Virus record (IMG/VR): IMGVR_UViG_3300023278_000762
Location: 1 to 53,315 of that record
Direction: 5' to 3' (one strand)
Origin: a virus
DNA: 53,315 bases
Shown piece after piece: positions 46,742 to 53,218 of this stretch. The translations under genes and the position numbers were made by a program. The stretch's first letter is position 1, and the number at the start of each line of letters is the position of its first letter. Under the pieces are notes generated by a model, which worked only from the letters and a program-made list of their open reading frames with translations, was not told where the DNA came from and searched no databases.

Positions 46742-47494
46742 TTAAAGATAATCAATCACTTGATCTTCACTTACGTTAGCGATAAGATGATCTATAGCTT
46801 CTTTTTTAATCTGAGAAACTATTACAGTTGCAGTAGGAACGTTAATATTCACGTACTCCGCAATTTGTTTAGCTGATTGTTTTTCACAATCTAAACCGTA
46901 AAATAATCTTACAACATCATATTGCTTTTTAGTTAAATACTCCCGCATGATACCTAACAAATAGCTGTTCAATAGATCTATATTATATTCTTTAGAATTG
47001 TCAGGCAACTGGTATGCAAAGTTATCTTCATTCAACGGATTAATGTCGTAACTAGAAAACATACTGTTGAAAAACATTGCTACCATTTTACTATTCTCAG
47101 GATTTTTTCTGATAGTAGTTAGTACATGCTCAGGTATTTTAATGTCTCCGCGGTTAATGTCAATGGCTCTACGTATAGCACCTTTAATTCGCTTACTGAA
47201 GAACGACTTTAAGGTTTTTTCTATATCGTCAGAAGCGTCGAGCTGGTCCCAGTCTAATCTATCTACAGCTTTAACTAAGCCTGAACTACCTTCTTGAATT
47301 AAATCATTAATACTCAACACTCCAGATGCTTGCTGTGAGGTTGAAAACTTTCTAGCTAGACTTTCTACTAATGGTAAAAATTTAACTATAAGTTCGTTTC
47401 TTGAGTAATCTTTGTATTCGCTTTTCATAGGAGGCATAGATTCTTTTAAGTCTTCTTTATATCTTACATAGTTCTGTATGTTATATTTTTTCAT
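46742..47494 (-). CDS. Sigma-70 family RNA polymerase sigma factor
   Basis: 250 residues. The sigma2 region is visible (VESLARKFS, NDLIQEGSSGLVKAVDRLDWDQ), with the -10-contacting helices. Region 4 is at the end (LTKKQYDVVRLFYGLDCEKQSAKQIAEYVNINVPTATVIVSQIKKEAIDHL), a helix-turn-helix for the -35 element. There is no region 1.1 and only a short region 3. It probably redirects host RNA polymerase to phage promoters, possibly the 26-bp motif repeated at the right end of this window or late promoters. This regulatory link is inference. Confidence 0.9.
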   Translation of the reverse strand: MKKYNIQNYVRYKEDLKESMPPMKSEYKDYSRNELIVKFLPLVESLARKFSTSQQASGVLSINDLIQEGSSGLVKAVDRLDWDQLDASDDIEKTLKSFFSKRIKGAIRRAIDINRGDIKIPEHVLTTIRKNPENSKMVAMFFNSMFSSYDINPLNEDNFAYQLPDNSKEYNIDLLNSYLLGIMREYLTKKQYDVVRLFYGLDCEKQSAKQIAEYVNINVPTATVIVSQIKKEAIDHLIANVSEDQVIDYL

Positions 47495-47603: not shown

Positions 47604-48231
47604 ATCTTTTTTTTAATTGCTGGTTAAGTAATTCTTTTTCTTTTTTTAATTCATTACCAATATTACGATGTATTGTTCTAGTAGAACATTCTAGATACTC
47701 AGCTAGTTTGTTAATAGTTATTTTTACGTTGTTATCATTTAACATTATCATTGCTTCGTATATTTCTGAGGATGACAATTTCTTTCTGCCAATCATTTGC
47801 CCTACTATAGATAGCTTTTGTCGCATATCTAAACCGCAATGGTCTTTAAATATAATTTTACGCAGCTTATTCGGCGGAGGTTTATCAAGATCCATAAGGG
47901 ATACATCATATACCATGCTCTGCAATAATTGACCTGAAACTTTAAAAGTAACAAATCCATTTATATTATCGCAAAGCATTCGTGTTAGGTCTGTAAATCC
48001 ATCAGGATCCATTTGAGGATTTAAGTACCACAACGTATATAGATGCCACTTTAAGGACTTGTAGGTATTTATTTTAGCTTTAGATGCAAACAAGTTGTAA
48101 CACTCGTGCGTACCCTCTTCATAATAAACACCCCAGTCGAATGATTTAGTAGGTACATCGCTAATCGGATCACGCCTATATATAACTTTTCGTTTTATAA
48201 GGTAGTTTGTGTTTCTTTCGTTTAGTGACAT
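47596..48231 (-). CDS. Helix-turn-helix regulator-like protein
   Basis: 211 residues. The C-terminal end (SSEIYEAMIMLNDNNVKITINKLAEYLECSTRTIHRNIGNELKKEKE) contains a clear helix-turn-helix with ITINKLAEYLECSTRTIHRNI as recognition region. The N-terminal part is basic/aromatic (YLIKRKVIYRRD, SLKWHLYTLWYLNPQ). It sits upstream of the sigma gene and after a 103-base gap, so it may control a promoter in that gap or act in replication initiation. I cannot decide between them. Confidence 0.7.
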   Translation of the reverse strand: MSLNERNTNYLIKRKVIYRRDPISDVPTKSFDWGVYYEEGTHECYNLFASKAKINTYKSLKWHLYTLWYLNPQMDPDGFTDLTRMLCDNINGFVTFKVSGQLLQSMVYDVSLMDLDKPPPNKLRKIIFKDHCGLDMRQKLSIVGQMIGRKKLSSSEIYEAMIMLNDNNVKITINKLAEYLECSTRTIHRNIGNELKKEKELLNQQLKKRYD

Positions 48232-49938: not shown

Positions 49939-49960
49939 ATTTATTTATTTTATATTCAAT

Positions 49961-49986
49961 TATATTATCGATTTGTAATCGTATTG
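49961..49986 (-). promoter_or_regulatory. 26-bp motif copy A, candidate early promoter
   Basis: Read leftward: CAATACGA, six variable bases, then ATCGATAATATA. One of four nearly identical copies (also 50532-50557, 51867-51892, 53075-53100). It ends 22 bases before the DNA ligase ATG. GATAAT/TAATAT can serve as a -10 element. The shared spacing to start codons supports a promoter. Confidence 0.65.
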
Positions 49987-49996
49987 TTTTTGTATG

Positions 49997-50275
49997 TTAT
50001 AAGTTATATTTTTTTTCAAGATCATTAATTTCGTCAGAAATTCTTTTTGCTTTCAAGAAATCTTGGTCATCAATGGATTTTGCTAACAAAGTTTTAAGTT
50101 CGCTAATTTTATTTTGTATAGCGTTTTTGCTATTGCTTAACTCAACTTTAATTTCTGTGCCTTCTTTTACAAGAACTTTTACGTCCTCGAGAAATTGTTT
50201 GTCATATTCTTCTTGCTTCGCCATCATCTTCAAGACAATGGCGTTAGCTAGCTTATCTATTTGATCGTCAGTCAT
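49997..50275 (-). CDS. Small coiled-coil protein
   Basis: 92 residues, helical throughout with heptad-like spacing (LANAIVLKMMAKQEEYDKQFLEDVKVLV, SKNAIQNKISELKTLLAKSIDDQDFLKAKRISDEINDLEKKY). Followed by the 26-bp motif copy A on the downstream side. Function unknown; an oligomeric regulator or accessory protein is possible. Confidence 0.65.
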   Translation of the reverse strand: MTDDQIDKLANAIVLKMMAKQEEYDKQFLEDVKVLVKEGTEIKVELSNSKNAIQNKISELKTLLAKSIDDQDFLKAKRISDEINDLEKKYNL

Positions 50276-51842: not shown

Positions 51843-51866
51843 AGTATTATATTTATTTGTTACATT

Positions 51867-51892
51867 TATATTATCGATTCTTGTTCGTATTA
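51867..51892 (-). promoter_or_regulatory. 26-bp motif copy C, candidate early promoter
   Basis: Read leftward: TAATACGA, six variable bases, then ATCGATAATATA. It ends 24 bases before the following ATG (51842) and overlaps the stop of the upstream deoxyribonucleotidase gene by three bases. The first eight bases are identical to the T7 promoter start, but the rest is not T7-like. Confidence 0.65.
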
Positions 51893-52315
51893 GATTTGTA
51901 AATGATTTAATACCGCTTTCCAGTCAGGAAATTTATCTGTACCAAACTGTATTAACTCACCGTCAAACTCACCTGCTCCGTTAGCCGTTCTATCGTCGAT
52001 CAATATGTCGCCACGTAGTAGGTTTTTATGGTTAGACAATATCAACCGCTTGTGCGCAAGAGGACCTAAGTATTTACTCACCCATTGTCGTTTATGAGTC
52101 CACGAGGCAGGCATATTCCACGGTGCAGTAGATAAGATATAGACGTCAAATTCATCTGTCATACATAATTCTGCAAATGCTTCAACCGCTCCGTCGATTG
52201 GTTTGGGATTCTTGAATATGTTAGGATGCCATTTACCGTTATTTTTATCAATTTCGGATTGGAGATCGACTAATACGCCGTCCATATCTACATATACTGT
52301 TTTATTCTTGTTCAT
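51890..52315 (-). CDS. 5'-deoxyribonucleotidase (HAD family)
   Basis: 141 residues. VYVDMDGVLVDL gives the HAD nucleophile Asp10 and acid/base Asp12. VYILSTAPWNMPASWTHKRQWVSKYLG contains the motif II Thr/Ser and a Lys-rich segment. DILIDDRTANGAGEF has the paired Asp of motif IV. This is the NT5C type that dephosphorylates deoxynucleotides, widespread in phages to tune dNTP pools or remove host dUMP/dGMP. It is in the nucleotide-supply cluster with nrdAB, thyA and MazG. Confidence 0.88.
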   Translation of the reverse strand: MNKNKTVYVDMDGVLVDLQSEIDKNNGKWHPNIFKNPKPIDGAVEAFAELCMTDEFDVYILSTAPWNMPASWTHKRQWVSKYLGPLAHKRLILSNHKNLLRGDILIDDRTANGAGEFDGELIQFGTDKFPDWKAVLNHLQI

Positions 52316-52507: not shown

Positions 52508-52687
52508 TTATTTTCTTATATAGGTTAGTCCTTTGTAGTTAAACCATTGACTTATTCCGTCAGTATCGTTTTCTTCATCCCACTTGAAAGCGAATGATGG
52601 AGGTAAGTTACCTACAGTATAAGGCTTGTATAGTACTTTGCCTAGTTTGATATTGTTTGTTGTTCTTTGTACTTTAATTGATTCCAT
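52508..52687 (-). CDS. Small basic protein of unknown function
   Basis: 59 residues from the ATG at 52687. A longer version from a GTG at 52765 would run through the tRNA-like RNA and is rejected. Sequence ESIKVQRTTNNIKLGKVLYKPYTVGNLPPSFAFKWDEENDTDGISQWFNYKGLTYIRK, basic with Trp/Phe/Tyr. It ends two bases before the next gene's ATG. Function unknown. Confidence 0.55.
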   Translation of the reverse strand: MESIKVQRTTNNIKLGKVLYKPYTVGNLPPSFAFKWDEENDTDGISQWFNYKGLTYIRK

Positions 52688-52707
52688 ATTGTTTATTTTT
52701 AAATTAG

Positions 52708-52785
52708 TGGAGGTGGAGAGAATCGAACTCTCTTCCGCAATAGTTCCATATAGGCTTTCTATCACGTCAAAACCAGGTCACCCCC
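52708..52785 (-). ncRNA. Stand-alone tmRNA tRNA-like domain (78 nt)
   Basis: Read leftward: acceptor strand GGGGGUG, then the tmRNA-type D region CCUGGUUUUGACG (bacterial tmRNA has CUGG-N-UUCGACG). A P2-like stem (GUGAUAG with CUAUUGC) is capped by a CC...GG mini-hairpin. The T arm GAGAG-UUCGAUU-CUCUC and acceptor strand CACCUCC with discriminator A close it. All seven acceptor pairs form, and the third is G-U, the alanyl-tRNA synthetase identity pair. The 3' CCA is not encoded. In ordinary tmRNA about 250-300 bases of tag and pseudoknots lie inside P2; here there are none. It would be charged and bound by SmpB but encode no tag. It is not a normal tRNA: no anticodon arm. Confidence 0.75.
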
Positions 52786-53070
52786 GTGTGCTACAAGCTA
52801 GGGTAATAACTATTGAGTGTTTTTAGTGGAGGGCTAAGAACCTCATACACTTGCATTATCACTCGCATTACTACTCGATACTAACTTGTAGCTACTAGCA
52901 ATTCACTTATGTGATTTAGGTACCGCTCCTCGCGGTATCTTTACAGCATTCGCCCACCTAAACCCTAATTAAGCTACTCGTCTAGTTTATTATAGGAAGC
53001 GTGATCGGCGTCTAATACATTTTCGTCGTTAGATATACCGGCCGGTCCGCTAATGTTTGCTTCCTTATTA
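52786..53070 (-). ncRNA. Long structured RNA region upstream of the tmRNA-like domain
   Basis: 285 bases with no gene, rich in self-complementarity when read leftward. A 12-bp stem joins GCUACAAGUUAG (52892-52881) to CUAGCUUGUAGC (52801-52790), whose end is four bases from the tRNA-like domain. Inside it GUAAU/AUUAC and GAGUG/CACUC pair further. A separate hairpin has UUUAGGU/ACCUAAA arms and a UACCGC/GCGGUA stem (about 52915-52962). AGGAAGC/GCUUCCU arms enclose the start, which contains AACGACGAAAA. The 26-bp motif copy D lies five bases upstream, so the whole could be one transcript of about 360 nt, the length of a tmRNA. Function unknown. Confidence 0.5.
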
Positions 53071-53074
53071 CATA

Positions 53075-53100
53075 TATATTATCGATCGGTGATCGTATTA
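53075..53100 (-). promoter_or_regulatory. 26-bp motif copy D, candidate promoter of the RNA region
   Basis: Read leftward: TAATACGA, six variable bases, then ATCGATAATATA; identical outside the variable core to copy C. It stands directly before the structured RNA and tmRNA-like domain, with no coding sequence following at the usual 22-24 base spacing. This suggests that it drives a non-coding transcript. Confidence 0.65.
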
Positions 53101-53110
53101 TGTTTGTGTA

Positions 53111-53218
53111 TTATTTGTACCATCCGTATGTAGGCAATTTCTTGCATCTTTTTCTTTTCACACTTCCACAACTAGCAAGCATGGATCCTAGTATTATTAG
53201 TAATATTATTTTCTTCAT
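53111..53218 (-). CDS. Small lipoprotein
   Basis: 35 residues. MKKIILLIILGSMLASCGSVKRKRCKKLPTYGWYK: a short signal peptide with lipobox LASC (Cys17 lipidation site), then a basic tail. The ATG overlaps the preceding gene's stop (ATGA). Very short lipoproteins with this basic, Cys-Lys-containing tail are common in flavobacterial phages; an outer-membrane, superinfection or lysis role is possible. The lipobox is the firm part. Confidence 0.6.
   Translation of the reverse strand: MKKIILLIILGSMLASCGSVKRKRCKKLPTYGWYK

What the first reader, a model, noticed from the sequence alone, without database searches (positions are those of the whole stretch)
52708..52785. A 78-nt tmRNA tRNA-like domain with no mRNA-like region
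The sequence shows the full tRNA-like half of tmRNA: acceptor stem with the G3-U70 pair, CUGG..UUUUGACG D-region, closed P2-type stem and T arm. The tag-reading-frame/pseudoknot part is replaced by a five-base loop. Known tmRNAs carry an mRNA-like region, as one piece or two; the tag-less forms I recall are in some mitochondria. A phage-made, alanine-chargeable, SmpB-binding RNA without a tag could jam or divert host ribosome rescue, or serve as a primer or a packaged RNA. The structure is seen; the function is speculation.
Basis: partly seen in the sequence, partly recalled or inferred. Interest (0 to 1): 0.85.

Follow-up and report, generated by a model that had tools for sequence, protein, structure and literature searches.

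The report
Phage tag-less tmRNA decoy
A virus of marine flavobacteria encodes an 81-base RNA that is only the tRNA-shaped end of the bacterial ribosome-rescue RNA (tmRNA), without the message part; one such phage RNA was already known, but close structural copies turn out to be common in many unrelated phages, including cultured ones, where they probably act as decoys that weaken the host's ribosome rescue.

Summary
Confirmed. Minus strand 52785-52705 is a complete tmRNA tRNA-like domain (TLD): Rfam RF00023, 69.4 bits, E 5e-25. It has a 7-bp acceptor with G3:U70, a stemless D region, a closed P2 helix, a T arm and A73. A 15-base apical loop replaces the whole tag and pseudoknot region. ARAGORN misses it. 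In relatives it is an 81-83-base island at 83-98% identity in mostly unalignable flanks. A set of 53 distinct phage TLD-only RNAs shows strong P2 covariation (89.9% paired in register, 35-47% when slid). None of 43 virus records searched carries SmpB or a second tmRNA; Bacteroidota hosts have full-length tmRNA. Unannotated copies lie in tRNA arrays of cultured Streptomyces phages. The idea is not new: TLD-only tmRNA is published for mycobacteriophage DS6A, and such a molecule inhibits tmRNA in E. coli (PMC4131195, PMC11915505). The most likely role is a decoy that titrates SmpB or stalled ribosomes (inferred). The main rival is template-free alanine addition. New here: the breadth of the class, its shared structure, and cultured phages in which to test it.

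The parts
52705..52785 (-). Tag-less tmRNA (tRNA-like domain only), 81 nt including the encoded tail ACTA
   Evidence: RF00023 69.4 bits, E 5e-25; conserved island in relatives
52779..52785 (-). Acceptor stem 5' strand GGGGGUG (G3 of the G3:U70 pair)
   Evidence: 7/7 paired; G3:U70 in 53/53 phage TLDs; same acceptor as most Bacteroidota tmRNAs sampled
52766..52778 (-). Stemless D region ACCUGGUUUUGAC
   Evidence: sequence; matches RF00023 consensus
52759..52765 (-). P2 helix 5' strand GUGAUAG
   Evidence: covariation across 53 TLDs
52744..52758 (-). Apical region AAAGCCUAUAUGGAA that replaces the mRNA-like domain and pseudoknots
52737..52743 (-). P2 helix 3' strand CUAUUGC
52716..52732 (-). 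T arm GAGAG-UUCGAUU-CUCUC
   Evidence: sequence; T stem 99.6% paired in 53 TLDs
52705..52715 (-). Acceptor stem 3' strand CACCUCC (U70), A73, encoded tail CTA; CCA would have to be added
   Evidence: sequence; ACTA tail in 8 and ACCA in 17 of 53
52894..52986 (-). Upstream conserved RNA module M1: invariant 5' and 3' blocks around a variable hairpin
   Evidence: found in relatives; no Rfam match
52790..52892 (-). Upstream RNA module M2, closed by GCUACAAG/CUUGUAGC, with a variable insert
   Evidence: found in L104 and L048
53065..53116 (-). Promoter-like repeated element that would drive M1, M2 and the TLD (inferred)
   Evidence: copies upstream of minus-strand ORFs at 51857-51908 and 49951-50002
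52508..52687 (-). Small ORF (59 aa from ATG at 52687) that starts 17 nt after the TLD tail; the longer GTG ORF overlapping the TLD is probably not its true start

Best explanation
The RNA is a phage-encoded tmRNA reduced to its tRNA-like domain. Shown: it has the elements read by AlaRS (G3:U70, A73), by SmpB (D region with T loop) and by EF-Tu (acceptor and T arm), keeps a P2 helix under selection, and has no tag, resume codon or pseudoknots; no SmpB gene is found in the phage. Inferred: it is transcribed with the small RNAs upstream of it, trimmed like a tRNA, given CCA, charged with alanine and bound by host SmpB and EF-Tu. It then competes with host tmRNA for SmpB and for stalled ribosomes without being able to supply a template, so it dampens trans-translation, and with it the tagging of nascent proteins and the decay of nonstop mRNAs, during infection.
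For: Rfam match. P2 paired in 85% of cells by a fixed rule against 52% (maximum 59%) when 3' strands are swapped among sequences, with up to six pair types per position; 89.9% in register against 35-47% when slid by 1-3 nt. The TLD is the sharply conserved piece between relatives whose flanks differ. The same class occurs in loci with terminase, portal or primase genes; 53 TLD loci fall into 36 groups sharing no protein in the DNA fetched. The TLD lies 1-7 nt from tRNA genes in several phages, including the window's clade (L017, L291), which fits tRNA-type processing. 0 of 43 TLD-bearing virus records have SmpB or a second tmRNA over the cut-off, so host SmpB would be the partner. Published: a DS6A-like TLD, chargeable or not, strongly inhibits tmRNA, perhaps by titrating SmpB (PMC4131195; in E. 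coli, PMC11915505). SmpB binds an isolated TLD fragment (PMC3929946).
Against: No expression or binding data. The inhibition experiment is known to me only through later papers (Mao 2009 is not held). That an overexpressed TLD inhibits does not show that the phage uses it so. If titration of SmpB alone were the aim, strict retention of G3:U70 and A73 would not be needed, although part of that conservation is built into my search patterns. Some phages carry full-length tmRNA instead, so phages as a group do not uniformly benefit from less rescue.
Confidence: 0.55

Rival explanations
1. Productive tag-less rescue or alanine tailing: alanyl-TLD with SmpB enters the stalled ribosome, accepts the nascent chain and either lets it be released untagged or adds several alanines without a template, freeing ribosomes for the phage.
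For: AlaRS identity elements are kept in all 53 TLDs. SmpB with a TLD fragment supports polyalanine synthesis in vitro without mRNA (Shimizu and Ueda 2006, as reported in PMC3929946). Tag-less mitochondrial tmRNAs persist together with SmpB (PMC11915505).
Against: The published in vivo effect of a TLD is inhibition of tmRNA, also when it cannot be charged (PMC4131195). No release factor or hydrolase partner was identified in the window.
Confidence: 0.22
2. Decoy for something other than trans-translation: a bait for RNA-cleaving defence or toxin enzymes, or a regulator of AlaRS or of the neighbouring RNA modules.
For: It sits in arrays of tRNAs or of odd structured RNAs, and phage tRNA arrays are thought to counter tRNA cleavage (general knowledge).
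Against: There is no anticodon loop for anticodon nucleases to cut. The conserved features are those of ribosome rescue.
Confidence: 0.12
3. Attachment-site remnant or decaying copy of a host ssrA gene.
For: tmRNA 3' ends are common integration sites; a 43-nt fragment next to an integrase is seen in Mycobacterium phage Shandong1.
Against: Both halves and P2 are kept with compensatory changes. No tyrosine integrase is found in the window. An attP copy would be a 3' fragment identical to the host gene, not a closed TLD with its own P2.
Confidence: 0.04
4. Half of a split or permuted tmRNA whose tag piece is elsewhere.
For: Permuted tmRNAs exist in Bacteroidota phages (Panino, MA9V-3).
Against: Here both acceptor strands and both P2 strands are in one short piece in the ordinary order. 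No permuted or mRNA-like match is found, and P2 has no free end to hold a second piece.
Confidence: 0.03

Closest known systems
TLD-only tmRNA of Mycobacterium phage DS6A (tmID 11587; Mao et al. 2009; PMC4131195, PMC11915505)
   Same: Phage-encoded; little more than the tmRNA tRNA-like domain; no tag.
   Different: Different host group (mycobacteria versus flavobacteria). The present class has tens of members.
Engineered TLD used for the SmpB co-crystal (T. thermophilus 5' 25 and 3' 34 residues joined by UUCG, PDB 2CZJ, described in PMC3929946)
   Same: Same design: TLD closed by a short loop, binds SmpB.
   Different: Man-made and shorter; the phage RNA has a longer closed P2 and a recurring apical motif.
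Tag-less mitochondrial tmRNA (jakobids, oomycetes; RF02544) and about 65-bp plastid forms of Mallomonadaceae (PMC11915505)
   Same: TLD without reading frame.
   Different: Organellar reductive evolution; it is the organelle's own tmRNA. In phages the RNA is added to a host that has full-length tmRNA and SmpB.
Full-length or permuted phage tmRNAs (Cellulophaga phi38:1 and Calle_1; Maribacter phage Panino and Chryseobacterium phage MA9V-3; Melnitz, PMC9004378)
   Same: Phage-encoded ssrA, some in phages with a related terminase.
   Different: They keep an mRNA-like region.

Membership tests
tmRNA (RF00023) | Acceptor stem with G3:U70 and A73 (alanine identity) | tested here: met
   Sequence 52709-52715/52779-52785; 53/53 phage TLDs, partly enforced by the search pattern
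tmRNA (RF00023) | Stemless D region and T arm with TTCRANN loop | tested here: met
tmRNA (RF00023) | P2 helix joining the TLD to the rest | tested here: met
   Covariation; here it is closed by a short loop
tmRNA (RF00023) | mRNA-like region with tag reading frame and pseudoknots | tested here: not met
   Middle of the model missing; nothing nearby; absent in all relatives of this class
Two-piece (permuted) tmRNA | 3' acceptor half encoded upstream of 5' half | tested here: not met
   Order is the standard one; RF04321 only 13.4 bits
TLD-only phage tmRNA (DS6A type) | Phage-encoded and consisting of little more than the TLD | tested here: met
   definition in PMC4131195
TLD-only phage tmRNA (DS6A type) | Sequence relationship to DS6A RNA | not tested
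   DS6A record not in the collection
TLD-only phage tmRNA (DS6A type) | Inhibits host tmRNA when expressed | not testable with these tools
   Needs an experiment; published for a similar molecule in E. coli
Functional SmpB ligand | Binds SmpB | not testable with these tools
   Required elements present; no SmpB gene in the window or in 43 virus records
attP copy of ssrA | 3' fragment next to an integrase | tested here: not met
   Complete closed TLD; no tyrosine integrase

The most novel reading that the evidence does not exclude
Tag-less tmRNAs are a widespread, selected phage RNA class, often carried in tRNA arrays by phages of several bacterial groups, that interferes with or rewires host trans-translation; in some phages it may make the ribosome add alanines without a template rather than merely titrate SmpB.
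Probability: 0.5. Interest if true: 0.78.

Novelty: new member of a known kind. Interest (0 to 1): 0.56.

Why it matters
Whether phages attack ribosome rescue is an open question that has rested largely on one odd RNA in phage DS6A. Finding the same minimal design with independent compensatory changes in dozens of phages, and unannotated in sequenced Streptomyces phages with laboratory hosts, makes it directly testable. It also shows that standard annotation (ARAGORN) misses the class or mis-extends it.

Tried and rejected
ARAGORN finds nothing in the window; in five loci it-490-nt 'tmRNAs' that end on a TLD but have implausible tags, so these are judged mis-extensions. A direct blastn of the whole 3' region against phages gives no match. 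DS6A could not be fetched, and Mao 2009 is not held. The first covariance model, built from the MAFFT alignment, lacked the acceptor because of end gaps and was not used; covariation was computed on a fixed structural register instead. Panino and MA9V-3 looked like possible TLD-only forms from the Rfam span but are permuted tmRNAs. Eremiobacterota hits fit ordinary cloverleafs with a D stem, so they were left out of the class. Promoter and terminator scans gave no clear excess over shuffles.

Full report
What is there. The window is a whole IMG/VR record of 53,315 bases. On its minus strand, 52785-52705 matches the Rfam tmRNA model from first to last position with the middle of the model missing (69.4 bits, cut-off 47, E 5e-25). 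Read 5' to 3': acceptor GGGGGUG; stemless D region ACCUGGUUUUGAC; P2 GUGAUAG; apical AAAGCCUAUAUGGAA; P2 CUAUUGC; linker GGAA; T arm GAGAG-UUCGAUU-CUCUC; acceptor CACCUCC; A73; encoded CUA. The predicted fold agrees. ARAGORN, which most annotators use, reports nothing. A scan for this pattern finds it once in the window and twice in 300 shuffled windows.

Whose genome. The terminase matches 87 phage records, all of them phages of Flavobacterium, Cellulophaga, Tenacibaculum or Maribacter apart from one uncultured record. The window carries terminase, portal, tail-fibre, ribonucleotide reductase, thymidylate synthase, primase-helicase, DNA ligase, ERF recombination and sigma-factor genes, and no SmpB or tyrosine integrase. 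The host is therefore most likely a flavobacterium (inference). The phage acceptor stem is identical to that of most of the Bacteroidota tmRNAs sampled (GGGGGUG/CACCUCC).

Conservation in the clade. Pattern and neighbour-protein searches brought in about twenty related phages. Between them the TLD is an island at 83-98% identity while the flanks mostly cannot be aligned. In L291 and L017 it lies 1 and 4 nt from a tRNA gene. P2 changes in step: GUGAUAG/CUAUUGC, GUGAUAG/CUAUUAC, GUAGUAA/UUACUAC, GUGGUGU/ACACUGC.

A wide class. Fifty-three dereplicated phage TLD-only RNAs of 77-85 nt were compared. Caveat: the searches themselves required the D, T-loop and often the CUCCA motifs, and the script required at least 6 of 7 acceptor pairs and 4 of 5 T-stem pairs; only P2 and the apical region were free. 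P2, taken by a fixed rule, is 85% paired against 52% with strands swapped among sequences (maximum of 2000 swaps 59%), and 89.9% in register (6 bp) against 35-47% when slid. The apical region often reads RAA(A/G)(G/C)CC-N4-GG (a strict form in 26 of 53). The 53 loci form 36 groups that share no protein in the DNA fetched (loci are fragments, so this is an upper bound on independence). Of ten proteins from ten other such loci, eight match named phage families such as terminase, portal, primase, tail fibre or a phage-borne tRNA-modification gene. A search with a longer gap (46-76) gave few candidates, so the class is centred near 80 nt.

It is an addition to the host system. None of 43 TLD-bearing virus records has SmpB or a second tmRNA match over the cut-off (many records are partial). 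The bacterial genomes G069 and G071-G075, which hold a TLD-like hit, also hold full-length tmRNA and SmpB. In 148 Bacteroidota genomes, 142 match at E 1e-12, nearly all with a full-length tmRNA of about 350-430 nt; the few remaining short matches are weak, 37-40 bits. TLD-only is thus mainly a phage form.

Cultured examples. A blastn with the L289 and L299 TLDs found Streptomyces phages LuckySocke, GiJojo, pSt2308, BRock, Alone3 and Shaeky. In LuckySocke, BRock, pSt2308 and Shaeky the TLD scores 57-64.5 bits as RF00023 and is unannotated among tRNA genes; Alone3 scores 36.8, below the cut-off. These were found without the CUCCA pattern and still have G3:U70 (for example GGGUCUG/CAGAUCC). The Shaeky paper reports 16 tRNAs found with ARAGORN and no tmRNA.

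What is known. PMC4131195 lists phage DS6A as 'TLD only' and says that a similar molecule, chargeable or not, strongly inhibits tmRNA, perhaps by titrating SmpB. PMC11915505 repeats this, adds CDS-less plastid forms and notes tag-less mitochondrial tmRNA. The primary paper (Mao 2009) could not be read. SmpB binds an isolated TLD, and TLD with SmpB makes polyalanine in vitro without template (PMC3929946). No paper found describes a class of phage TLD-only tmRNAs, in a library that lacks most subscription journals.

How it most likely works. As a decoy: charged, bound by SmpB and EF-Tu, taken into stalled ribosomes or holding SmpB in solution, but with no message to resume on. Shown: anatomy, selection on P2, absence of a tag region, absence of a phage SmpB gene. 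Inferred: expression, charging, binding, inhibition, benefit to the phage. The strict alanine identity leaves room for the rival in which it adds alanine or frees ribosomes without tagging.

Surroundings. A promoter-like element at 53065-53116, repeated upstream of other minus-strand genes, precedes two further structured RNA modules (M1, M2) and the TLD. M1 has 21 invariant bases near its 5' end and a nearly invariant 3' block around a hypervariable hairpin whose closing pairs covary by eye; relatives carry other modules, one with a T arm. The window's modules match no Rfam family. They deserve their own study.

Verdict. The value lies in breadth, structure and testability.

Noticed in passing
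window 52894-52986 (-); L164, L048, L340, L356, L101, L069, L017, L104, L003, L200: RNA module M1: invariant blocks (C)TAGACGAGTAGCTTAATTAG and ACATAAGTGAAT(W)GCTAG around a hypervariable hairpin with covarying closing pairs; no Rfam match; AGUA/GAA parts could form a sarcin-ricin-type motif.
   Followed up: partly
window 52790-52892 (-); L104, L048: RNA module M2 with conserved flanks, a closing helix and an exchangeable hairpin insert directly upstream of the TLD.
   Followed up: partly
L104, L356, L101, L003, L163, L166, L291, L338, L340: Module M3: about 60-100 nt, acceptor-like ACTAG/CTAGTTAC ends and a true T arm (GGTTCGATTCC) but little or no anticodon arm; a second odd tRNA-like RNA in the same arrays.
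   Followed up: partly
window 53065-53116, 51857-51908, 49951-50002 (minus strand; weaker 47952-48003): Repeated element TAATACGA-N8-ATCGATAATATAAATG upstream of minus-strand genes, probably a phage promoter (the phage has its own sigma factor at 46742-47494).
   Followed up: partly
L374, L366, L378, L386, L391, L392, L396, L408, L409, L411, L424, L437, L442 (Eremiobacterota and unnamed bacterial MAGs): Multiple 75-nt tRNA-like genes with G3:U70 and varied anticodon loops, up to three in a row about 225 bp apart in L374; some are called tRNA-Asp, Ile or Val by ARAGORN.
   Followed up: no
L483 (Maribacter phage Panino), L485 (Chryseobacterium phage MA9V-3): Permuted tmRNA order (3' acceptor piece upstream of 5' piece) in phages of Bacteroidota hosts.
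   Followed up: partly
L537, L538 (Cellulophaga phages phi38:1 and Calle_1): Full-length phage tmRNA whose reading frame appears to encode ANMEAVNAILNLEVAVGV, without the usual ALAA-like degradation end; reading frame read by eye.
   Followed up: no
L451, L452, L459, L462, L467, L468, L470, L479, L481: A 95-nt group (GGGGTCGCAAYCTGGCATCGACG...) with TLD ends but a much longer P2 loop.
   Followed up: no
L261, L262, L299, L343, L353: ARAGORN-490-nt tmRNAs with odd tags that end on a TLD-only RNA; probable source of mis-annotated phage tmRNAs.
   Followed up: partly
L549 (Mycobacterium phage Shandong1): A tmRNA 3'-end fragment directly beside an integrase gene, i.e. a likely attP in ssrA; a useful contrast to the closed TLDs.
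   Followed up: no
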